Of a DNA stretch of 64,000 bases, positions 1-9,082 are shown one piece after another. Each line of letters opens with the position of its first letter. Positions within the stretch are counted from its first letter, which is position 1. The notes under the pieces were generated by a model that searched no databases, was not told where the DNA came from, and saw only the letters and a list, made by a program, of their open reading frames with translations. The position numbers were made by a program, and so were the translations under genes. The stretch comes from Geobacillus kaustophilus. GTDB lineage: Bacteria > Bacillota > Bacilli > Bacillales > Anoxybacillaceae. The stretch spans positions 620,001 to 684,000 of the forward strand of contig NZ_JYBP01000003.1 of the NCBI RefSeq assembly GCF_000948285.1. Reading direction: 5' to 3'.

Positions 1-44
1 TTAATCACTTTAAATTCTGGCAATCCTAGTGGTATAGAAAGCAC
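1..44 (-). CDS. ISL3-family transposase, N-terminal fragment cut by window edge
   Basis: A GTG start at 44-42 follows a strong ribosome binding site (AAGGAGGT, 7 nt upstream). The visible residues are M-L-S-I-P-L-G-L-P-E-F-K-V-I, which resembles the conserved opening of ISL3-family transposases as I remember them. Only 14 codons are inside the window, so the DDE domain cannot be judged. The location just inside an element terminus supports the call. Confidence 0.6.
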   Translation of the reverse strand, partial: MLSIPLGLPEFKVI

Positions 45-110
45 TTACGAGACCTCCTTAATGTTTATTTCACCGCTAACATTATTGCCAGGATCTCGTC
101 AGTGCTTTCT
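36..110 (-). promoter_or_regulatory. Inverted repeat that can pair over the transposase start codon
   Basis: The leader segment at 95-110 is complementary to 36-51 (15 of 16 positions); the latter contains the GTG start and the bases just after the Shine-Dalgarno. RNA entering from outside the element would carry both arms and could hide the start. A second pairing (83-90 with 17-24) would cross the first, so the two would be alternatives or a pseudoknot. Similar protection from read-in transcription is known for IS10 and IS50; its use here is inference. Confidence 0.45.
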
Positions 111-199
111 CTTTTTTGTCACTAAATCACAAAATTTGGTGATGAACCTTATTTTTTTAGGAGTATCCCTGACTCCTTTATCATCCGGATTCGGCATCG

Positions 200-415
200 T
201 TATTTGACCGTAATGGTCACGTATCCTCTTGAACCAACCGTTTGACCAACAATTTGGCCATAATATTTATCGCCTTCTTGTTGTGGAAAATTGCGCGTTT
301 CTTCTTGCCTAGGATTGAGCCAGTTGGTGGAGGCGACGACGCTGTCGGGCCACCAATTGATCAATTTGTAAGCATAGCCTCTTGTTTGGGTCGCGAAGCC
401 GTTATTTGCGGCCAA
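200..415 (-). pseudogene. Signal-less copy of the secreted peptide encoded at 4133-4531
   Basis: The 71-residue product from a TTG start aligns over its whole length with the C-terminal half of the secreted peptide: both have G-Y-A-x-K-x-I-N-W-W-P-D-S-x-V-A-S, a later Y-Y pair, and end in a T-V-K/T-V-N strand. There is no signal sequence, and an in-frame TGA lies two codons upstream of the TTG. It follows the 219-aa permease gene by 25 bp. It is either a decayed second peptide gene or a cytoplasmic partner, for example an immunity decoy. No cysteines are present. I lean towards a truncated gene. Confidence 0.5.
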
Positions 416-439
416 ACGTCAATGATACCCTGTCTGCTT

Positions 440-1099
440 TTATTGAGGTTTCCGATCTCCTTTGCGGATCCATACAATGGTGATACATGCTACTAGAAAG
501 ATGGACAGCGTTAACATGATGAATTTGTTGATGAGCATCGGTTCCCAAACCGGCGGCTCGAACAAAAAGATATGCGGCCAGGGCATGAACGTTCCTAATG
601 TGGCCACTTCAAGCACCGTATAAATAAAAATGACTGTCAGTGCGATATGGGTGTTTTTTGTAAGAACAAGGGCGGCAGTGCTGAAAAATAGGTAAAAGAA
701 CGTCAATAGAATGAAATGAATGAGATTCAAAAAAGACAAAGAAGAAACTCCGTATTTCCACATGAATGCCCCGCTTAGAGCGGCAACTCCTAATAAATGG
801 ATGGAAGAATAACGTACGACATCAATCCCAACCCATTTCCTATAGTAAGGGACAAGCGTTTCTTGCGCTCCATCTTCATACAGTTCACCGAATCGATAAA
901 TCAGGCACCATCCGGAAAACGGGATGAACAACCCTTGGATGACGATCACATCATCGTAAATGCTTGACGATTTCCGGGGAACAAGCAAAATAAGCAACAG
1001 CGATAGGATGAACATCGCTGGTGGGATAAAAAAGGCTCCGCCCATTGTCTTGCGGTCAAACACGAATGCGGTTCGCATCCATTCGATGTAAGCTTTCAT
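440..1099 (-). CDS. ABC-2-type permease-like membrane protein, 219 aa
   Basis: The protein has about six hydrophobic segments (roughly residues 22-40, 50-65, 95-112, 118-140, 145-165, 190-210) and no soluble domain, as expected of a small ABC-2 type permease. Its ATG overlaps the stop of the ATPase gene in an ATGA junction, so the two are translationally coupled. It is the last long gene of the cassette and probably pairs with the ATPase at 1096-1965. Substrate is unknown; the secreted peptide of the same operon is the natural candidate. No closer family was recognised. Confidence 0.65.
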   Translation of the reverse strand: MKAYIEWMRTAFVFDRKTMGGAFFIPPAMFILSLLLILLVPRKSSSIYDDVIVIQGLFIPFSGWCLIYRFGELYEDGAQETLVPYYRKWVGIDVVRYSSIHLLGVAALSGAFMWKYGVSSLSFLNLIHFILLTFFYLFFSTAALVLTKNTHIALTVIFIYTVLEVATLGTFMPWPHIFLFEPPVWEPMLINKFIMLTLSIFLVACITIVWIRKGDRKPQ

Positions 1100-1965
1100 C
1101 TTGGTTCCCCTCTTCGGACAACAGCCAAATAGCCATCGATCAATCGCGGTGCCACCGGTCTCCCCCCTGTTCCCCCATTTTTGGAAAACACCCGCGCGTG
1201 AATGCCATCCTCTTCTTCGAGAAGCTGCACCACTTCTCTCGTTGCGATCAAGTCATCCAATTCTTCGGGGCATATGCAATATTCCCACACACAGCCTTCT
1301 GCGCGGGACTTCAGCTCAGACGGCGTGCCTTCAAACAACACTTGCCCTTGTTTCAAAACCCCAATTTTGGTGCACAAAAACTCAATGTCTTCCACAATGT
1401 GCGAAGAAATGACAATCGTATGCTCGGAACCAAGCTGCTTGAGCAGATGGCGAAAGCGGATTCGCTCTTCAATATCCAAGCCGGCAGTCGGCTCGTCAAA
1501 CAGCAAGATGGACGGCTTTCGCGTCAATAAATGGGCAATTCCCACCCGCCGCCGCATGCCGCCGGACAGCTCGGACATTTTTTTCGTCTCATGGCCGTTC
1601 AAGTTCACTTTTTGAATCGCTTCGGCAACGGCCGCGTGCCGTTTGTGTTTGTCCATCATTCCTTGCAATAAAGCGAGATGGTCAAGCGTTTCTTCGACCG
1701 TAATGTTCGGATAGACCATGAAATCTTGCGGCAAATAACCGATCCGTTCATGAGCTTTCACATATTTTCCTTTGGTGCAGCTTTGTTTGCCGATCGCCAC
1801 TTGCCCTTCATCCATGGGCGTCAAGCCGGCCAATATTTTCATCAATGTCGTCTTGCCGGCTCCGTTCGGCCCGACTAACCCGTAAATCCCTTCCATGCAA
1901 AGCGATACGTTCGATAAAATGAGTTGTTTTTTGATTCGTTTCGTGACGCTGGATACATGGATCAT
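1096..1965 (-). CDS. ABC transporter ATP-binding protein, 289 aa
   Basis: This is a complete nucleotide-binding subunit: Walker A G-P-N-G-A-G-K-T-T near residue 33, Q-loop L-P-Q-D-F, signature L-S-G-G-M-R-R-R, Walker B I-L-L-F-D-E-P-T with D-loop A-G-L-D, and H-loop S-S-H. About 85 residues follow the core domain, as in multidrug or bacteriocin-immunity ATPases. ATGA overlaps join it to the 683-aa membrane protein before it and to the 219-aa permease after it, so it very likely powers a complex with one or both. It is the only catalytically intact ATPase in the cassette. Confidence 0.85.
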   Translation of the reverse strand: MIHVSSVTKRIKKQLILSNVSLCMEGIYGLVGPNGAGKTTLMKILAGLTPMDEGQVAIGKQSCTKGKYVKAHERIGYLPQDFMVYPNITVEETLDHLALLQGMMDKHKRHAAVAEAIQKVNLNGHETKKMSELSGGMRRRVGIAHLLTRKPSILLFDEPTAGLDIEERIRFRHLLKQLGSEHTIVISSHIVEDIEFLCTKIGVLKQGQVLFEGTPSELKSRAEGCVWEYCICPEELDDLIATREVVQLLEEEDGIHARVFSKNGGTGGRPVAPRLIDGYLAVVRRGEPR

Positions 1966-4013
1966 GTCTGTCCCTCCTGAACGATGCGGATAAGCTGTAT
2001 CGCTTTCTCCCAGCTGTTATCTGCTCCTTCATTTATTTGTTTGTACCATAAAGCCAAAAATTTTTGTTTTTTCTCATCGGATAAGCGTTCATACTCCCCA
2101 TACAGCTTCCTCAGCACTTCCTCTGTTTTCTTGTCAGGGGGATCCACTGACAAAGCCAAATCAAACGTCAAATCTCCTCCGGAATAGGGAAGGGCTAATT
2201 GTTGTTGGAACCATCTTGACAACAACGCTTGAAACACGTCTTTTTGCATTGATAAATGTGTTCCCCTCCAAAGAAGCCCTTCTGTGATGATTTCCGGCAA
2301 ATACATCAATGTTCCTTCTTGGGAGCGAAGGGAATATGGCGTATCAATTTGAAGAAGCAGGTGATCGCTGCTATATACACACCGTTGTTCACCATGGGGA
2401 GCGAGCAACACGATGTTTGTCGGCAACTTTGCCGCTTTTAAATCGAACATCTGCACGATATCATGGTGGATGCGCCGTACATGACGTTCGAAAATCGGCC
2501 AATCTTGCTTAAGATTCGGCCAGTCGGCAGGGTAAACGATCTGCCATGGCCCGATTTTTTCCTTCAAAAACATTCCTGCCACAGCTGTAATGCCGCCGGA
2601 TACAACTCCTTCGTACATTCCGTCGCTTCGGCGCGGCAAATTCGTATAAAATGGCGCCATTCCATAAAACGACAACGTATAGCGGATCGGATGGCTCGAT
2701 TGCATTGATACAGGCACCGGACTGGAATGAACGTTCACAAAGGCAAACGGAGCATGATTGGCTTTTGTCGGCACCCAGCTGAAATCGCTCGGTAAAAACA
2801 AATAGTGCGGTGAAACGGGAATTTGCGCGGAATCGTTCAATTGATACTCAAACGTCCATTTGTCAGTCAAGCGATTGGATAACCGTTTAACCGTGATGAC
2901 ATCCCCCTGTTGAGTAAAAGGAAGCTGGTTTCCAGTTTGATCGGTGATTCGCTTCAGAGCAAAATGATGATAAAGCACGAACGACAGCGTGTCGCCCCGA
3001 ATTTGGCGCAAGGTCACTTTCACTTTCGCATGTACACCGTTTTTGGCCTCCAGCTGAATGTCGTATCGCTCAATCGAATAGTGCAATGTGCTTGGTTGGA
3101 TGGTTGAATCATGAGTTTGGTAGTAAACGTTTTCTTGAGCCAAATCAGCGTAGCTGAACACCAGTTTGTTTCCAGTGAAAAGATGCGGAAACAACCAAGC
3201 ATCACCCGCCAAAAGCAAAACAACACCCGTAATAATGGCCGCTTTCTCCTTTGTCGTGCGGGCCGTTTTCCAAAGAATAGCCCATACCGCCATCATCGAC
3301 GATAGGATCCAAAACAATATTTTCATATACGTCGAAAGGCTGACATGGTACCCAATGACGTCACGAAATACATCGTCCATATTCAGCGGACCGATGTAAA
3401 ACAAACTACGGATGTCGGAAAAAGGGATTAGATGGAAATAACGGGAAAACAATTGTGTATTCATCGGGCCTATGGCCAGCCAAATGACCATCATCCAGGC
3501 AAAGCTTAATCGATTTTTCCCAAACAATAGAGCATTGAAAATACCAAGAAAAAAGGCAAATACGAACGGCAATAGCCAATATACGGCAATATACGATGCC
3601 GTTTCGGTATACAACGAAGAAAAGGGAAGACCCCATGTGCGGTAAAACTGCCATACAAGTACAACTTGCAGACCGGTGAAGAATGAAAGAAACAGCAAGT
3701 GATTCACGAACAAGGCGGCGATTTTCAACGCTGTGATGTGCAGTGAACCGGCAAACAAAAGATTGGCGCCAAATCGGTATTCATCAGAGAACAACTTATA
3801 AAAAAATACCATAAACAGTAGCATGGCTGCTTGGACGATTAACGTCATTTCCCCGACAAAGTTTCCATAATCCGTCTTGCCAAAGGAATCGTACTGGCGA
3901 ATGAGAAAGCGCATCATCAGCATGATGAACCAAAATGTGTATGTTCCCATATAGAGAATACTTTTTCCCATCTGTTTGGCGTAAAACCATGATAGGCGAG
4001 TAAACAAAGTCAT
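1962..4013 (-). CDS. Large membrane protein, ABC-2 permease fused to degenerate M1-peptidase-like domain, 683 aa
   Basis: The first ~285 residues hold about seven membrane segments; the remaining ~390 residues form a soluble region with beta-rich character (residues ~310-480) and a C-terminal helical part. This architecture recalls permease/M1-aminopeptidase fusions, but no H-E-x-x-H zinc motif is present, so any peptidase activity is unlikely. It is paralogous in layout to the 622-aa protein at 6918-8786. Its stop overlaps the ATPase start (ATGA). A peptide gene, a large membrane protein and an ATPase in this order also recalls lactococcin 972-type loci. The family assignment comes from architecture, not a database match. 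Confidence 0.6.
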   Translation of the reverse strand: MTLFTRLSWFYAKQMGKSILYMGTYTFWFIMLMMRFLIRQYDSFGKTDYGNFVGEMTLIVQAAMLLFMVFFYKLFSDEYRFGANLLFAGSLHITALKIAALFVNHLLFLSFFTGLQVVLVWQFYRTWGLPFSSLYTETASYIAVYWLLPFVFAFFLGIFNALLFGKNRLSFAWMMVIWLAIGPMNTQLFSRYFHLIPFSDIRSLFYIGPLNMDDVFRDVIGYHVSLSTYMKILFWILSSMMAVWAILWKTARTTKEKAAIITGVVLLLAGDAWLFPHLFTGNKLVFSYADLAQENVYYQTHDSTIQPSTLHYSIERYDIQLEAKNGVHAKVKVTLRQIRGDTLSFVLYHHFALKRITDQTGNQLPFTQQGDVITVKRLSNRLTDKWTFEYQLNDSAQIPVSPHYLFLPSDFSWVPTKANHAPFAFVNVHSSPVPVSMQSSHPIRYTLSFYGMAPFYTNLPRRSDGMYEGVVSGGITAVAGMFLKEKIGPWQIVYPADWPNLKQDWPIFERHVRRIHHDIVQMFDLKAAKLPTNIVLLAPHGEQRCVYSSDHLLLQIDTPYSLRSQEGTLMYLPEIITEGLLWRGTHLSMQKDVFQALLSRWFQQQLALPYSGGDLTFDLALSVDPPDKKTEEVLRKLYGEYERLSDEKKQKFLALWYKQINEGADNSWEKAIQLIRIVQEGQT

Positions 4014-4063
4014 AAGGGGTCACTCCATTGTCAGCATAGTCGTATCCATCAACGATAGCAGGG

Positions 4064-4112
4064 AAGCAAGCGAATGCCGGTGTGATGGAGCCGTGTTGAC
4101 ATTCGCTTGCTT
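4064..4112 (-). terminator. Intercistronic stem-loop between peptide gene and ABC genes
   Basis: Thirteen base pairs (AAGCAAGCGAATG with CATTCGCTTGCTT) close a 23-nt loop. There is no T-tract, so it is more likely a processing or partial attenuation structure than a full terminator. Such structures commonly let a peptide gene be expressed above its transporter genes. Confidence 0.5.
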
Positions 4113-4132
4113 GTTGAATAAAGCGTGCCAAC

Positions 4133-4531
4133 TTAATTCACGGTCACTTTTGCTTCGCCATAAATAGATGTCGCATTGGCCTGTGTGTATGCTTCAGCAT
4201 AGTAGAAAGACCCGTTTTCAGCTGTGAAAGATTTTTTTATTGTTTGTGATGGATAGGCTATTGCCGAAGCAACTGTTGAATCAGGCCACCAGTTAATTTG
4301 TTTTTTGGCATACCCTTGTACATAAAATGCTGGACCTGATGAAGAGACGACCAATGTTCCAGAGGCCCCAGTAGCTTTCACTGGTGTTCCTGTGGCAGAA
4401 CTAGCCCCCGGTGAAATATGCGCAATGGAAGTGCCGGAGGCATAAACAGATCCAGCAATGCTGAGAACCAACACTAAAATGAATAGTGGTAGCCCCTTAG
4501 CTTTCGTTTTACGTGCCTTATTGACAACCAT
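4133..4531 (-). CDS. Sec-secreted cysteine-free peptide, 132-aa precursor, putative bacteriocin-like
   Basis: The start at 4531 is set by a near-perfect Shine-Dalgarno (AAAGGAGGTGA, 6 nt away). A basic N-terminus (K-A-R-K-T-K-A-K) is followed by a hydrophobic stretch and a signal peptidase I site (S-V-Y-A before S-G), leaving about 100 residues. The mature protein starts with a Ser/Gly/Ala/Thr-rich linker, then a region with I-N-W-W-P-D-S and several Tyr. No cysteines argues against a disulfide or lanthionine peptide. It sits between two ABC-permease blocks and has a shortened copy at 200-415. Secreted bacteriocin is the best guess; a secreted matrix or signalling protein is possible. Confidence 0.65.
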   Translation of the reverse strand: MVVNKARKTKAKGLPLFILVLVLSIAGSVYASGTSIAHISPGASSATGTPVKATGASGTLVVSSSGPAFYVQGYAKKQINWWPDSTVASAIAYPSQTIKKSFTAENGSFYYAEAYTQANATSIYGEAKVTVN

Positions 4532-4682
4532 CCTTCTCACCTCCTTTTAAGGGTAGTAATTTGGTAGAATCAAGTTGATAAATGGGTTTAGGAAGCATTG
4601 TGAATATTTTTTCTATTCGATTTGTAAAGATGAGATAATGTGCATTCGAAAAATCATCTTTTAAGAAATAATAAAACTGTTC
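4518..4682 (-). pseudogene. C-terminal part of the split ABC-ATPase-like gene
   Basis: These codons, starting at the target duplication (G-A-A C-A-G T-T...), continue the reading frame of 6448-6921 exactly if the IS66-type element and one 8-bp duplication are removed: ...E-D-L-E-Q joins F-Y-Y-F-L-K-D-D-F-S-N. The segment includes the would-be H-loop, here I-F-T-N-R with Asn instead of His. Its TAA overlaps the start of the secreted peptide gene by 14 nt, which shows that the peptide gene was once directly downstream in the same operon. Confidence 0.8.
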
Positions 4683-4728
4683 GTAACTATTCACCCCGAT
4701 GCTAGTGTGTAAAGTAGCCCAGCACAAA

Positions 4729-4758
4729 TAGGGCATTTCTGTCATAGAAAATGCCCTA
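4729..4758 (-). terminator. Stem-loop at the 3' end of the IS66-type transposase gene
   Basis: The arms TAGGGCATTT and AAATGCCCTA pair perfectly around a 10-nt loop and overlap the transposase stop codon. The following bases are only weakly T-rich (TTTGTG), so termination may be partial. Confidence 0.5.
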
Positions 4759-6204
4759 CGTAGCGGAAAGAACACGATCTATCGTTTCGCCTGTCAACAG
4801 AAGACACAACGAGTCCCACACGTTTTTTTCGTGCTTGGTGAGTGTGGAAACGATGCTCCTTGCGATGCAAAACGACTGCGCGAACGTTTCCTGACGAAAT
4901 GTACCCGAGATGTTCTCTTTGACTTTGACCATGCGAAGATCCCGTTCGGCTTGGTTGTTGTCAAAAGGAACGTGAGCTTCACGCAAAAAGCGCAACGCTT
5001 CTTCCTTTCGTTTTTGAAGTCGCCGAACGAAGGAGAGCGCTTTTTTCGGCAACGGTGTCATCCCTTCCAACTGATGGTTGGCTTTCTCGAGTATGCGATC
5101 ATACACGTGCTCCCAACGTTTCGCTTCTTCTTCAGGAAGAAAGCCACCATGTTGTTCGACCACTTGTTTGGCATTTAATAGAAACGTGGTCATCCGTTTT
5201 GCCCATGTATGCCCTTGTTCGATGAATCCTTTCAAGTCACGTAAATGATGGGCATGACAAAGGGCATGTGTGGCTTCGGTGTATCTCGGGTATGTACCGA
5301 ATGCATCATGCATCATCGTTCCTTTATATCGTGGAAGAATCCCGATTTCATCGGTTGCTTTCTTTCCACGAGAAGCGTGAGGAGCTAAGTACGTATATGC
5401 GGATGTACAGGCGACATGAACCCAGGCCTGTTTGCCATCGATCCGCAAGCTCGTTTCATCGACATGCAAGATGTCCGATTGAAGCAATGCTTCCTCGATG
5501 ATGTCCATGTTTGGTTCGAGTGCTTCGCGACCTCGTTTGACCATATTGACAAGTGTTCCTGTGCTGATCGGATGTTGATATAGCTCTTCCATCATGTCAC
5601 GTAAACGTTGATATGGAATCATTTGTATGTTGTATAAATACACGACAAGCGCCGTGATCCGTGGACCATATTGCACATGATTGGTGACGTGTGATGGGAA
5701 CTCGGCTTGTTGCACGCATCGGCAATGTGGACATGATTTCACTTCGCGTTCATGTTGTGTCACTTCCATCGTCACGGGAGGCAGATCAAACACTTGACGG
5801 ACATCGACTTTGAACGGTTTTACGTCACGCAAAGAAGACCCGCATCCTTGACACGTATGTACGCGATGGACGACACGATGATGTGGATGTTCCACTTGAC
5901 GGAGCGTCGTTCCCTCATGTCCCTCCCGTCCGCCAGGCTTTTTGTCAGACGGTTCACGAGAGGAACGCTTTTTCTCAAAACGGTCAGAAGATGGGGGCAG
6001 ATGGCTATTAGAGCTGTTTTTTTTCGTGCGTGCTTCCAGCTCTTGAACACGATACTTCAGTTGTTCATTTTCTTTGCGTAGCTGTTTGTTTTCTTGACGC
6101 AAATGTTCATTTTCTTGAATGAGTTGATGAATGAGCTGTTTTTGTTGTTGGACTTTGCTGATTAAGCTTTCAACCGTCAATACAGCTTGTTGTACCGTCA
6201 ACAT
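4756..6204 (-). CDS. IS66-family transposase (ISBst12 type), 482 aa
   Basis: The start at 6204 follows AAGGAGGTGA at the right distance; a longer reading frame would begin inside that site. The N-terminus is a leucine-rich coiled coil (about residues 10-65), followed by a Ser/Lys-rich linker, a zinc-ribbon-like region (C-x-G-C and C-P-H-C-x-C), and the DDE core with H-V-D-E-T, D-x-F-G-T-Y and a final N-x-A-E-R-D-L-R. The frame is intact, so the element may still be active. It lies in the same direction as the interrupted operon. Confidence 0.9.
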   Translation of the reverse strand: MLTVQQAVLTVESLISKVQQQKQLIHQLIQENEHLRQENKQLRKENEQLKYRVQELEARTKKNSSNSHLPPSSDRFEKKRSSREPSDKKPGGREGHEGTTLRQVEHPHHRVVHRVHTCQGCGSSLRDVKPFKVDVRQVFDLPPVTMEVTQHEREVKSCPHCRCVQQAEFPSHVTNHVQYGPRITALVVYLYNIQMIPYQRLRDMMEELYQHPISTGTLVNMVKRGREALEPNMDIIEEALLQSDILHVDETSLRIDGKQAWVHVACTSAYTYLAPHASRGKKATDEIGILPRYKGTMMHDAFGTYPRYTEATHALCHAHHLRDLKGFIEQGHTWAKRMTTFLLNAKQVVEQHGGFLPEEEAKRWEHVYDRILEKANHQLEGMTPLPKKALSFVRRLQKRKEEALRFLREAHVPFDNNQAERDLRMVKVKENISGTFRQETFAQSFCIARSIVSTLTKHEKNVWDSLCLLLTGETIDRVLSAT

Positions 6205-6260
6205 GCGATTCACCTCCTTGTCTATCAATATTCACATCATAGACAGGAAAACCAAAAAAT

Positions 6261-6408
6261 GGATCTTCACCACACAGTGTACTTGACAAAGAAAGACGAT
6301 CATGATAAAGAAAACCAAAACAGCATTTTTTTATACCACACATCTCTTTGAGCAACATTGCTATCATGTTTGTCTTTAAAAGTCAAGTACATCTTTTGGT
6401 GATGAACC
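6261..6408. mobile_element. 148-bp ISL3-type MITE nested in the IS66 element
   Basis: Imperfect terminal inverted repeats of about 50 bp begin GGATCTTCACCA (left) and GGTTCATCACCA (right, other strand) and both contain TGTACTTGAC and CATGATA. The element is flanked by a perfect 8-bp duplication CAAAAAAT (6253-6260, 6409-6416). The terminus matches the ISL3-family element at 1-148, which is the likely source of the transposase. No coding capacity. Confidence 0.88.
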
Positions 6409-6409
6409 C

Positions 6410-6446
6410 AAAAAATATTCAGCTCACTTTATGAGGTGGCTGAATA
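6410..6446 (-). terminator. Terminator inside the IS66 right end facing the interrupted operon
   Basis: On the minus strand TATTCAGC...GCTGAATA closes a hairpin with an additional CAC/GTG pairing and is followed by TTTTTT. It lies 2 bp beyond the stop that the element gives to the split gene, so transcripts coming from 8786 should end here. The MITE inserted in its T-tract. Confidence 0.65.
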
Positions 6447-6447
6447 G

Positions 6448-6921
6448 TTACAACTGTTCTAAGTCTTCGAAGTCAAAGTGTTTCGTCGGCTGATCGAAAA
6501 TGAATACTGTGCGATTTAGCGACTGTCCAAGAGAAACAAGATAAATCAGCCGTTGAAACATCGTCAATGAATCGATGGATGCATGGGAAGGGAGGCGATA
6601 TTTTTTCCATAGTGCCGATTGCTGAAAAGGACGATTCAGCCATATCGAAATATCTTGCAAACGATAGTTTCTCCACAGTTGGTGGTAGTTCTCAGGAATC
6701 ACGAAAAATACGGTTTTATTCGGTTTTCCTTTTGCTGCCTGTTCATTGAAATGGATTTCCCCTTCATCGATAGGATGAAAGCCGGCAAGCGCTTTGGCGA
6801 CAATATCTGTGCGAATGTGATTTTTGGCTAGAATGATGGATTGGGAAGGAAGATTGACGGAACAATGATGCAAAATAAGTTGGCGATGGTGCTTGAGGGT
6901 CACATTTTTTAATTCCATCAT
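6448..6921 (-). pseudogene. N-terminal part of split ABC-ATPase-like protein lacking catalytic motifs
   Basis: The start at 6921 overlaps the stop of the 622-aa gene (ATGA) and has AAGGAG 5 nt upstream. The 157 codons align with the active ATPase at 1096-1965 (e.g. A-L-A-G-F-H-P-I-D-E-G-E-I), but Walker A is replaced by A-K-N-H-I-R-T-D, the signature by D-S-L-T-M-F-Q-R, and Walker B reads F-I-F-D-Q-P-T with Gln for the catalytic Glu. The frame ends in a TAA supplied by the IS66 end; the original C-terminus is at 4518-4682, giving about 208 aa. The motif decay predates the insertion, since the frame was otherwise open. Confidence 0.75.
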
Positions 6922-8786
6922 TTGTCTCCTTCCCCCCTTTCTTGCGCTAGTTGAATCAATATGTTTTCTTTTTCTTTTATGGATAGTGCCATGTAGTGCT
7001 CCCACGTTGTTGAGTCGATGGAGGATTTTTCCGCTATCCTGTTTCCATATCCGATAGATGGAATATGTAGTTTTTCCATTAAATACAAGCCGACAAAGAG
7101 ACTGATCTGTTCGTTTTCGAACAATCGGTACGGGATGGAAAACGCAGCCAACTCCTGAATATGTTTGGTTGCCGGAGTGCCATTGACGTCCAAGAACGGA
7201 TCAACATAAAACGTGTAGTTTCCGTCAGCCACCGTGCTGTCGTACAGCGAAAGGTTTGTGGTGTTGATGCTTTTTGGGATGATTGAGACGCTCTTGACTT
7301 CTTTTGTGCAATAATCTGTATTTGCAAGATTCGGAAACAAGTGGCATAGCTCATTGCGGATGGAAACGAGTTGATGCTTCAATTCCATATAATTTCTTGT
7401 TGTAGTGAGAAATGGTTTATAAACAAGGAAACGAGTATGTTGCACTTGAATTTGTTTGTAAGGACCATTGATCACGGAGAGACAAGGGAGATGGTCCCCA
7501 TGCCAACGGTACTTTTCCTTTCCGACAATCATGTTGACTCGTGTACATGTTTTCGTTTCCACATTGGAATGAAGCGTTCCGGATGAGTCGATATCGTAAA
7601 GCGTTGAATCCATGGACTGCGGATACCAGTTGGCTTCAAATGGCAACAACGTGACGCCCGATGTCAACGGATAAAAGGTTGAGCCGAACGTATGCCGATA
7701 ATAGATCGTCATGGATGGGGCACCGTTGGTCTGCACCTGAACAACGTTTCCTTGTTGTTGAAAGGGGAAACGCTTCCCTCCGCCTTGGATGTGATCGATT
7801 TGAAATTGCTCGTTGATCGAAAAACGAACGGTGTGTTCTTTCGGATGCAGAGAGAGTGTGGCTTTGATCGGATACGTGGATTTCGGATTCACCTCGATCT
7901 CCTTGATTTTCCAATATCCATGCAACGGGATGTTCTTGGGCTGAGCCTGATGTTTGATTTGTTGATAGAGTTTGACGTCGTTTGCCAACAGAATGTCATC
8001 CAACTGGAATTTTGATTGTGCATGTTGAAGGAAAAATGTTACGAAAATAACGAGAGTCACACTAGCCGCAAGCCCCGCGAAGGATCGCCGCATGCTTCGA
8101 AAAACGCCATAAACGGCGATGGAAGAAAGAATATACGCCAATTTGATCAGCACGCGTTCTTTTTGGAAGGTTAGGCTGAATAACGGGTCAATGTAAGGCC
8201 AACGATGGTTTCTCCACAAGGAGAAGGATGGATTGCGATATTCCAAAGAAAACAGCACGATGATCCACAAAACAAACACACCAACGAGCAACATCGCTTT
8301 TTTCGAAGAATGATAGGCGTAAACAGCGCCTGTGGACAATCCGATCATCCACGCCCATAGAAATGGTAGAAGAAAATGAATCAAATACAATGGAAACAGA
8401 AAGGCGAAAAGATCCCAACCCGCTGAATAGTTGATCACCACCGCACCGGCGATGATCCCGGCCAAGGCCAGTTGCCAAGCGAAAAAACAAATAAATGCGA
8501 TCAAAGCTTGGCAGAAGACGATCTTTTGCGGGTTTGGCATGATGTCATTCATCGCGATCCAGTGAATTGGAGTCGAAGTGAACAACGAAACATGCAAGCG
8601 GAAGCTGAAGAGCAGCCAGACGGCCATTCCAATCGGAACCAAGTATTTCGTATATAAGATCCACTCCGCTGGATTGATGGTATGGGGATTGAGGCAAACA
8701 AACATCAAAACCCCAGAAAATACGAATATGAAACTAGCTTCTGCTTTTAAGCGGGACGCCATTCTTGAAATGAACACCCATTTCAT
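6918..8786 (-). CDS. Large membrane protein, ABC-2 permease with degenerate M1-like region, 622 aa
   Basis: Residues 1-260 contain about seven membrane spans; residues ~270-620 are soluble and beta-rich, then helical, like the 683-aa protein at 1962-4013. No H-E-x-x-H metal site is seen. It is the first gene of the reconstructed operon and is translationally coupled to the ATPase-like gene. It is less conserved with the 683-aa protein in sequence than in layout, so the pair may form a heterodimeric permease. GC content is below that of the conserved genes to the right, consistent with transfer. Function is unknown; a role in peptide export or immunity is inferred from context. Confidence 0.6.
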   Translation of the reverse strand: MKWVFISRMASRLKAEASFIFVFSGVLMFVCLNPHTINPAEWILYTKYLVPIGMAVWLLFSFRLHVSLFTSTPIHWIAMNDIMPNPQKIVFCQALIAFICFFAWQLALAGIIAGAVVINYSAGWDLFAFLFPLYLIHFLLPFLWAWMIGLSTGAVYAYHSSKKAMLLVGVFVLWIIVLFSLEYRNPSFSLWRNHRWPYIDPLFSLTFQKERVLIKLAYILSSIAVYGVFRSMRRSFAGLAASVTLVIFVTFFLQHAQSKFQLDDILLANDVKLYQQIKHQAQPKNIPLHGYWKIKEIEVNPKSTYPIKATLSLHPKEHTVRFSINEQFQIDHIQGGGKRFPFQQQGNVVQVQTNGAPSMTIYYRHTFGSTFYPLTSGVTLLPFEANWYPQSMDSTLYDIDSSGTLHSNVETKTCTRVNMIVGKEKYRWHGDHLPCLSVINGPYKQIQVQHTRFLVYKPFLTTTRNYMELKHQLVSIRNELCHLFPNLANTDYCTKEVKSVSIIPKSINTTNLSLYDSTVADGNYTFYVDPFLDVNGTPATKHIQELAAFSIPYRLFENEQISLFVGLYLMEKLHIPSIGYGNRIAEKSSIDSTTWEHYMALSIKEKENILIQLAQERGEGDK

Positions 8787-8838
8787 GTGGAATGCCCTCT
8801 CTGATCATCAATTTCAAATGTTTGTAAAATTCAATGGC

Positions 8839-8864
8839 ATTATAAAAAAAAAAGAAGATGTCAA
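8839..8864 (-). promoter_or_regulatory. Possible promoter of the peptide/ABC operon
   Basis: TTGACA and TATAAT are both perfect on the minus strand, but only 14 bp apart with an A/T run between them, 3 bp short of the usual spacing. It lies about 50 bp before the start at 8786. A regulator that twists or bends the spacer could be needed, or the true promoter is elsewhere. Confidence 0.35.
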
Positions 8865-9082
8865 CCTTTTACATGGAAATTCACAGTATATTCGCAAATA
8901 ATAGGAAAATCGTATTATCATGATAGTTTTTGGCCAATTTCGCGCCTTTAGATGCAGGGAGTGTCCATTGTGTGACGTGCTTTTTTTCGATGCGCTGAAC
9001 GAAAGTGTTAGACATGAAATCGAGTGCGACGGGAAAACGATTTATGAAAAAGCCCGCTCATAAACCATGTCTTTTTGTCTAG

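What the first reader, a model, noticed from the sequence alone, without database searches (positions are those of the whole stretch)
200..8786. A broken but reconstructable secreted-peptide/ABC operon with two giant permeases
Removing the IS66-type element restores one minus-strand operon: 622-aa permease, ATPase-like protein, Sec-secreted peptide, 683-aa permease, active ATPase, 219-aa permease, second peptide copy. Junctions are ATGA overlaps or a 14-nt overlap, apart from the 119-bp hairpin gap after the peptide gene and the 25-bp gap before the second copy. Peptide with signal sequence, large membrane protein and ATPase recall lactococcin 972-type loci, but the peptide shows no clear similarity and two permease systems surround it. 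It may be an undescribed secreted antimicrobial or signalling system.
Basis: partly seen in the sequence, partly recalled or inferred. Interest (0 to 1): 0.85.

Follow-up and report, generated by a model that had tools for sequence, protein, structure and literature searches.

The report
Mobile secreted-protein and ABC-transporter cassette
A heat-loving Geobacillus carries, twice, a gene cluster that makes a small secreted protein together with an unusual membrane pump; the same pair recurs in some Bacillus relatives and on plasmids and looks like an unrecognised bacterial weapon with its own protection system, though no activity has been tested.

Summary
The operon is real. The same genome holds a near-identical twin without the IS66 element, in the ileS-lspA interval, so IS66 (window 4683-6451, 8-bp target repeat) is a late insertion into the degenerate-ATPase gene. 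Relatives keep the order perm622, dead ATPase, secreted protein, large permease, ATPase, small permease. The large "permeases" have about 280 membrane residues plus a soluble part that resembles M1 aminopeptidases (low-confidence model) without HExxH. The secreted protein is cysteine-free, a predicted beta-sandwich of about 100 mature residues. Apart from the active ATPase, no cassette protein of the window matches Pfam or NCBIfam above cut-off; kinship with lactococcin 972 was tested and not found. Peptide sequence lies beside ABC genes in 11 of 11 genomes where found, and in 5 of 8 plasmid loci reached by the permease alone. In Geobacillus a type-1 cassette displaced the 5' half of a type-2 peptide gene, leaving a fragment and, in several strains, an intact transporter, as in toxin/orphan-immunity arrays. 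Most likely a bacteriocin-like protein with a self-protection ABC transporter (about 0.5); activity is untested, and two loci with intact peptide but broken permease speak against. The window's second "peptide copy" is only a 3' fragment.

The parts
6918..8786 (-). perm622: membrane part plus soluble domain; paralogue of the 683-aa protein
   Evidence: profile comparison with the 683-aa family, probability 99.3%
6452..6921 (-). ATPB, 5' part of the degenerate ABC ATPase gene, cut by IS66 (twin: ORF of 236 aa, about 207 aa from the likely ATG)
4518..4682 (-). ATPB, 3' part, on the other side of IS66 (not joined here)
4683..6451 (-). IS66-family element (transposase 4756-6228), 11-bp terminal inverted repeats, 8-bp target repeats at 4675-4682 and 6452-6459
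   Evidence: IS66 transposase; flanks
4133..4531 (-). Secreted protein, type 1: Sec-type N-terminus then a cysteine-free predicted beta-sandwich of about 100 residues
4064..4112 (-). Hairpin in the gap between peptide gene and permease gene (13-bp stem)
   Evidence: whole gap z -2.05
1962..4013 (-). permL (683 aa): ABC permease with an M1-aminopeptidase-like soluble domain lacking HExxH
1096..1965 (-). ATPA: intact ABC ATPase (GPNGAGKTT, LSGGM, FDEP, SSH)
440..1099 (-). permS: small membrane subunit (219 aa)
200..415 (-). 3' fragment of a second peptide gene (type 2, from about codon 68), without start region and signal sequence
8839..8864 (-). Promoter-like TTGACA/TATAAT pair with 14-nt spacer (17 nt in the twin)

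Best explanation
The cluster is a bacteriocin-like module. SHOWN: a small cysteine-free protein with a Sec-type N-terminus is encoded directly before, and co-varies with, an ABC transporter made of a large permease with a soluble M1-aminopeptidase-like domain that lacks the zinc motif, an active-looking ATPase and a small permease. A second, paralogous pair (perm622 plus an ATPase that has lost its catalytic motifs) precedes it in one branch. INFERRED: the protein leaves by Sec, folds as a beta-sandwich and attacks the envelope of related bacteria. The ABC transporter protects the producer: its dead-peptidase domain, placed outside, captures the protein (or its bound target) and ATP hydrolysis drives it off. 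The inactive pair cannot power transport and probably acts as a fixed binding, sensing or assembly partner shared by different cassettes. New peptide-ABC cassettes enter by recombination between the end of the dead-ATPase gene and the resident peptide gene; the old peptide is decapitated and its transporter kept as orphan protection.
For: Gene order kept in relatives. Peptide profile found in 11 of 299 order genomes: 10 of the 11 also have a permL match, and the 11th (G106) has a divergent permease and an ATPase beside the peptide; in G017 only damaged peptide copies remain. perm622 at E<=1e-20 in 8 genomes, all 8 with a peptide match. Out-of-sample: of 11 plasmid records found by the permease alone, 8 were opened and 5 have a peptide-like gene beside or inside the cassette (E 1e-4 to 3e-17); one plasmid is typed conjugative. 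All 13 aligned peptides are cysteine-free with a Sec-like N-terminus. Peptide and permL distances correlate (r 0.93, 12 loci); with 10 loci and ATPase distance removed r is 0.53-0.62. perm622/ATPB are 61-62% identical between Geobacillus and Anoxybacillus while peptide, permL and permS are 26-38% and ATPA 58%. Breakpoint in ATPB (90-base windows at 86-100%, then 62, 57, 36%) and in the second peptide gene near codon 68. Intact transporter ORFs with damaged peptide: L006 cassette 2, L024 cassette 1, L026, L027 (both), L028 cassette 2; and 8 loci with no peptide found (L071, L075, L076, L077, L085, L116, L121, L122).
Against: No activity data. Two cassettes have an intact peptide but a broken permL (L024 type 2, L074), which an obligatory protection system should not tolerate unless the peptide is silent or another transporter covers it. 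In L022 cassette 2 and in a third permL copy of L024 both peptide and permL are damaged. The shared second-peptide fragment reflects one ancestral event, not five. Co-variation is partly phylogeny, and before correction the permL soluble domain is the part that correlates least with the mature peptide (0.85, against 0.88 ATPA, 0.90 membrane part, 0.92 permS), which does not favour it as the capture site. The peptide is more conserved than permL in most pairs, so no arms-race signature. The permL model is poor (pLDDT 52), and the tool warns that matches of such models can be meaningless. The hairpin after the peptide gene has z<=-2 in 11 of 12 gaps, but so have 13 of 26 other gaps.
Confidence: 0.5

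Rival explanations
1. Secreted signal: the protein is a pheromone or envelope-stress ligand and the ABC transporter is its sensor or clearance pump, wired to transcription.
For: ECF sigma and/or Sigma_reg-type anti-sigma genes lie beside relatives: L071 (sigma and anti-sigma) and L073 (anti-sigma) by Pfam; L074 and L078 by look-alike sequences only; plasmids L117, L119 (sigma only), L120, L123 as annotated.
Against: The window genome has no Sigma_reg_C match (0 of 1) and no regulator in the operon; a beta-sandwich of about 100 residues is large for a pheromone; cassette displacement is not expected.
Confidence: 0.15
2. Extracellular structural or surface protein: the beta-sandwich is a secreted building block and the ABC/M1-like complex helps its folding, assembly or turnover.
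For: Generic jelly-roll matches, among them the Bacillus endospore fibre protein Ena2A (rank 8, TM 0.41/0.46); two tandem peptide genes in L069.
Against: Matches are unspecific (TM on the query at most 0.51 in the 50 PDB rows listed); no cysteines; patchy and plasmid-borne (8 of 41 family genomes; 11 of 299); ABC sets kept without a peptide.
Confidence: 0.15
3. The ABC transporter exports the peptide (dedicated exporter, as NCBI's name for the lactococcin 972 ATPase suggests).
For: Constant neighbourhood; ATPA gives a below-cut-off match to TIGR03608 (120.6 bits against 254.85).
Against: The peptide has its own Sec-type N-terminus; no processing-peptidase domain was found by Pfam; transporters persist without peptide.
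Confidence: 0.1
4. Lactococcin 972-family bacteriocin locus.
For: Similar outline: Sec-secreted protein, large membrane protein, ATPase.
Against: No PF09683/TIGR01653 match; profile comparison probability 0.2-2.6%; membrane proteins not TIGR01654 (control loci L102 and L103 match, L105 below cut-off, L101 not); profile comparison 6% and 1%.
Confidence: 0.02

Closest known systems
Lactococcin 972-type loci (PF09683/TIGR01653, TIGR01654, TIGR03608)
   Same: Sec-secreted protein followed by a large membrane protein and an ABC ATPase (L102, L103); a true lactococcin 972 gene even exists on another contig of the same genome (L101)
   Different: No detectable homology in peptide or membrane protein; here a three-part transporter with an M1-like domain, plus a second degenerate ABC pair
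Polymorphic toxin / CDI loci with orphan toxin-immunity modules (PMC9086364, passages seen)
   Same: New toxin-protection pair displaces the resident one, leaving a toxin fragment without start codon and a downstream protection gene
   Different: Here the unit is a complete small secreted protein and a three-gene ABC transporter; no modular toxin tip and no contact-dependent carrier
Self-protection ABC transporters of lantibiotic producers (recalled: NisFEG, BceAB with a large extracellular domain)
   Same: ABC machinery beside a secreted peptide; ATPA matches TIGR03740 (lantibiotic protection) below its cut-off (138.9 against 309.75 bits)
   Different: Sec-secreted protein, no modification enzymes seen in the cassette; domain of M1-peptidase type rather than BceB type (BceB recalled)
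M1/M61 aminopeptidases (gluzincins)
   Same: Foldseek ranks 1-18 for the 683-aa model are all M1/M61 enzymes (E 4e-4 to 1.4e-2, 3 at E<=0.001)
   Different: No HExxH in 22 of 23 family members; the one hit (L075, residue 377) lies in the N-terminal beta region (alignment)

Membership tests
Lactococcin 972 family | Peptide matches PF09683 / TIGR01653 | tested here: not met
   Window peptide: no such hit; 13 relatives: no such Pfam hit; hhalign against 5 true members probability 0.2-2.6% (small alignments)
Lactococcin 972 family | Membrane protein of TIGR01654 type and ATPase above the TIGR03608 cut-off | tested here: not met
   No TIGR01654 hit for 622/683/219 aa; ATPase 120.6 bits against cut-off 254.85. 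Controls: L102 and L103 pass TIGR01654, L105 is below its cut-off, L101 has no hit; L102 passes TIGR03608
Bacteriocin with dedicated protection | Secreted small protein encoded with a cognate protein set | tested here: met
   Neighbourhood in 11 of 11 genomes and 5 of 8 opened plasmid loci; co-variation
Bacteriocin with dedicated protection | Kills or inhibits other bacteria; producer protected by the neighbouring genes | not testable with these tools
   Needs an assay
ABC transporter, active ATPase (ATPA) | Walker A, signature, Walker B with catalytic Glu, H-loop | tested here: met
   GPNGAGKTT, LSGGM, FDEP, SSH; PF00005 E 3.5e-33
ABC transporter, active ATPase (ATPB) | Same motifs | tested here: not met
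   In four lineages read: Walker A lost; signature LTMFQ, LTAFQ, LTKFQ or FTNFG; FDEP to FDQP (LDQP in G090); SSH to FTN. Still under purifying selection, e.g. dN 0.22, dS 1.71
M1 peptidase | Fold of M1 N-domain and catalytic domain | tested here: inconclusive
   Foldseek ranks 1-18 M1/M61 but model pLDDT 52 and TM at most 0.28 there; Pfam Peptidase_M1_N in 1 of 23 at E 0.04
M1 peptidase | Zinc motif HExxH | tested here: not met
   Absent in 22 of 23, misplaced in one

The most novel reading that the evidence does not exclude
An undescribed class of secreted beta-sandwich bacteriocins in Bacillales. Its self-protection is an ABC transporter whose sensing domain is a retired M1 aminopeptidase, helped by a conserved pseudo-ABC pair with a dead ATPase. 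Loci evolve by cassette displacement that leaves orphan protection transporters: an orphan-immunity array built from whole ABC transporters rather than single immunity genes (I found no precedent, which cover only the held library).
Probability: 0.35. Interest if true: 0.82.

Novelty: new variant of a known kind. Interest (0 to 1): 0.62.

Why it matters
A recurring, sometimes plasmid-borne secreted-protein/ABC cassette that the family libraries used here do not recognise would escape bacteriocin mining. A published in-silico bacteriocin screen of Geobacillus lists G. icigianus G1w1 as encoding none (PMC6160750, one table passage seen), although that strain carries two sets of these transporters with damaged peptide genes (L027/L093). 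If the protection role holds, peptidase-derived domains and dead ATPases would be new parts of ABC-type self-protection, and the cassette junctions give a direct way to test toxin-displacement evolution in Gram-positive bacteria. If the peptide is not toxic, the system is still an unexplained conserved module.

Tried and rejected
Rejected: lactococcin 972 membership. Rejected: separate unrelated loci for the two halves. Not used as strong evidence: the hairpin after the peptide gene as a bacteriocin-type attenuator; the excess over other gaps is modest (11 of 12 against 13 of 26 at z<=-2). Rejected: PADLOC defence system; matches only for the active ATPase. No solved relative by sequence for permL or peptide; PHROGs one weak hit in 1 of 13. 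Fold matches of the peptide in the PDB and viral libraries are generic beta-sandwiches, TM on the query at most 0.51 and 0.55 among the 50 rows listed in each. The Pfam M1_N search of 41 and 119 genomes found no true M1 enzyme to compare with, so no profile comparison with M1 was made. Literature: 9 searches listed no paper that I recognised as describing this system; I saw listings with starts of abstracts, and passages of three papers (PMC6160750, PMC8538875, PMC9086364). Errors of mine: the ATPB row of L025, and one ATPB seed, were read in a wrong frame; that row was ignored and the frame corrected (its motifs were read). Dropped before counts: the peptide-peptide gap of L069 from the hairpin count (12 of 13 folded gaps counted), L074 and L106-type divergent G106 from the 10-locus test (both were in the 12-locus test), 3 of 11 plasmid records not opened.
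Full report
Observation. The window is bases 620001-684000 of contig 3 of a 3.68-Mb, 3-contig genome; the 9 related loci that the search for related loci named are from Geobacillus, Anoxybacillus and one Bacillus. IS66 occupies 4683-6451 with 11-bp inverted ends and an 8-bp target repeat, and splits only the ATPase-like gene. The same genome holds a twin at C3:1,925.7-1,932.8 kb, 99.9% identical over 4692 bases and 99.4% over 2465 bases, without IS66, in the interval between ileS and lspA. The interval also holds an ISL3-type transposase and a further transporter set. The twin answers the 'reconstructable' question with a natural copy. Its promoter-like site is a perfect TTGACA-17-TATAAT; the window copy has a 14-nt spacer and is not listed by the same scan, so the twin is probably the working copy (inference).

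Anatomy. (1) Secreted protein: 132 aa, 5 K/R in the first 18 residues, hydrophobic core, A-x-A-like cleavage region, no cysteine; the 13 aligned relatives share the hydrophobic N-terminus and lack of cysteine (hydropathy only, no signal-peptide predictor was available). AlphaFold2 from six sequences gives eight strands, mean pLDDT 67.8, block means 68-88 from residue 41 on. Fold matches are generic jelly-roll/beta-sandwich proteins in the 50 rows listed per library. (2) permL (683 aa): membrane segments lie in the first 280 residues or so. The low-confidence model (pLDDT 52) still ranks M1/M61 aminopeptidases 1 to 18 in the PDB. HExxH is missing in 22 of 23 family members. Pfam ABC2_membrane_4 matches 3 of 23 and Peptidase_M1_N 1 of 23 (E 0.04). 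(3) ATPA has the ABC motifs. (4) permS, 219 aa, membrane protein. (5) perm622 is a remote paralogue of permL along nearly its whole length (hhalign probability 99.3%, 554 columns). (6) ATPB has lost Walker A, signature, catalytic Glu (F/LDQP) and H-loop in the Geobacillus, Anoxybacillus, FJAT-47783 and G090 versions, yet dN is well below dS where dS can be estimated (for example 0.22 against 1.71), so it is kept as a dead subunit.

Relatives. The six-gene order occurs in Anoxybacillus mongoliensis (L025/L090), Bacillus sp. FJAT-47783 (L070/L089), G090 (L069, with two tandem peptide genes) and the twin L006. A core version, peptide-permL-ATPA-permS, occurs in L073, L078, L079 and L080; L074 has a 5'-truncated permL, L072 has part of perm622 at a contig start, and L084 and L081 have divergent versions. 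In samples of 299 genomes of the order, the permL profile matches 24 (E<=1e-6), the peptide profile 11 (E<=0.001) and perm622 11 (E<=1e-6), of which 8 have E<=1e-20. Ten of the 11 peptide genomes are among the 24; the eleventh, G106, has a divergent permease and an ATPase next to the peptide. In G017 only damaged peptide copies are left. As an out-of-sample test I searched plasmids with the 683-aa protein only: 11 records. Of the 8 opened, 5 carry a peptide-like gene: L117, L118 and L119 directly upstream, L120 between permL and ATPase, L123 two on the other strand. Three do not (L116, L121, L122; the last two look like close sisters). pGeo12b (L117) is typed conjugative.

Cassette logic. Between the Geobacillus locus and Anoxybacillus, perm622 and ATPB are 61-62% identical, but peptide, permL and permS are only 31, 26 and 38% and ATPA 58%: the downstream module is a different type. 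Another Geobacillus locus (L023, G. zalihae) has the Anoxybacillus-like type 2. Comparing L006 with L023 in 90-base windows, identity is 86-100% through the second half of perm622 and most of ATPB, then 62, 57 and 36% from about L006 14370 on; similarity returns at 97% over 239 bases in the second peptide gene from near codon 68. So a type-1 cassette (end of ATPB, peptide 1, permL1, ATPA, permS1) took the place of the 5' half of peptide 2. The same junction is visible in the window (and so its twin), L022, L024 and L028, and in altered, shorter form in L027, hence probably one ancestral event. What remains is a peptide fragment without start and, in L006, L027 and L028, an intact type-2 transporter, the pattern described for displaced toxin/immunity modules in CDI loci (PMC9086364, passages seen). 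Damage: intact transporter ORFs with dead peptide in L006 cassette 2, L024 cassette 1, L026, L027 (both), L028 cassette 2; transporter with no peptide found at E<=1e-3 in L071, L075, L076, L077, L085, L116, L121, L122 (a very divergent peptide could be missed); intact peptide with broken permL in L024 (type 2) and L074; both damaged in L022 cassette 2 and a third copy in L024. The class with intact peptide and broken permL speaks against a strict toxin-protection pair and is not explained.

Co-variation. Over 12 loci, peptide and permL distances correlate with r 0.93 (Mantel p 0.0001), peptide and ATPA 0.85. Over 10 loci the mature peptide correlates with permS 0.92, permL membrane part 0.90, ATPA 0.88 and permL soluble domain 0.85; with ATPA distance removed, 0.55, 0.62 and 0.53 remain for permS, membrane part and soluble domain (p 0.0022, 0.0004, 0.0016). 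This indicates linkage or matching, not contact; it does not single out the soluble domain, and shared ancestry is only partly removed.

Not lactococcin 972. The peptide profiles do not match, the membrane proteins do not match, and the NCBIfam models that recognise real loci (L102, L103) do not recognise these proteins. L101's own membrane protein is also not recognised, so those models are not complete.

Mechanism and verdict. The protein has its own Sec-type N-terminus, so the ABC machine should not be needed for export (inference). The co-variation with the peptide, the persistence of transporters after peptide loss, and the patchy, partly plasmid-borne distribution fit self-protection against a bacteriocin-like protein. 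The role of the dead pair is open. The finding is a real, conserved system that I did not find described in the held library; its function needs an assay.

Noticed in passing
L073 10061-10822, L074 12505-13167, L078 6096-6854, L079 4166-4879, L084 10813-11520, L117 9691-9927 (cut), L118 7462-8280, L119 7403-8143, L120 8678-9436: A phospholipase A2-like protein of about 220-270 aa (GCLPGGYxWCG, CCxxHDxCY; weak Pfam PLA2 matches, best E about 1e-3) lies near 9 core-type cassettes (the profile was built from 5 of them, so 4 are new finds) and near none of the other 20 loci scanned in that call. Its part in the system is unexplained.
   Followed up: partly
L071, L073, L074, L078; plasmids L117, L119, L120, L123: ECF sigma factor and/or Sigma_reg_N/C anti-sigma genes beside the cassettes (L074 and L078 by look only); the window genome has no Sigma_reg_C protein.
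   Followed up: partly
L082, L083, L086: A distant 751-755 aa permL-like protein with an ABC ATPase next to a gene that looks like an ECF sigma factor (by eye, not scanned) in other Bacillales; no peptide gene found there.
   Followed up: no
L101 8790-9161 (own genome, contig 1): A true lactococcin 972-family gene (PF09683) followed by a 663-aa membrane protein that matches no NCBIfam model at E<=0.01.
   Followed up: partly
window 1-8910 and L006 8371-16847: Two sites of this genome (the window's, with methylmalonyl-CoA mutase-like genes on its left, and the ileS-lspA interval) carry nearly identical copies including an ISL3-type transposase, whereas G. zalihae has different cassettes in two loci (L022, L023): recent copying between sites.
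   Followed up: partly
L078 6986-7189: A 67-aa extra peptide fragment upstream of the full peptide gene (E 1.5e-7), possibly a second remnant of displacement.
   Followed up: no
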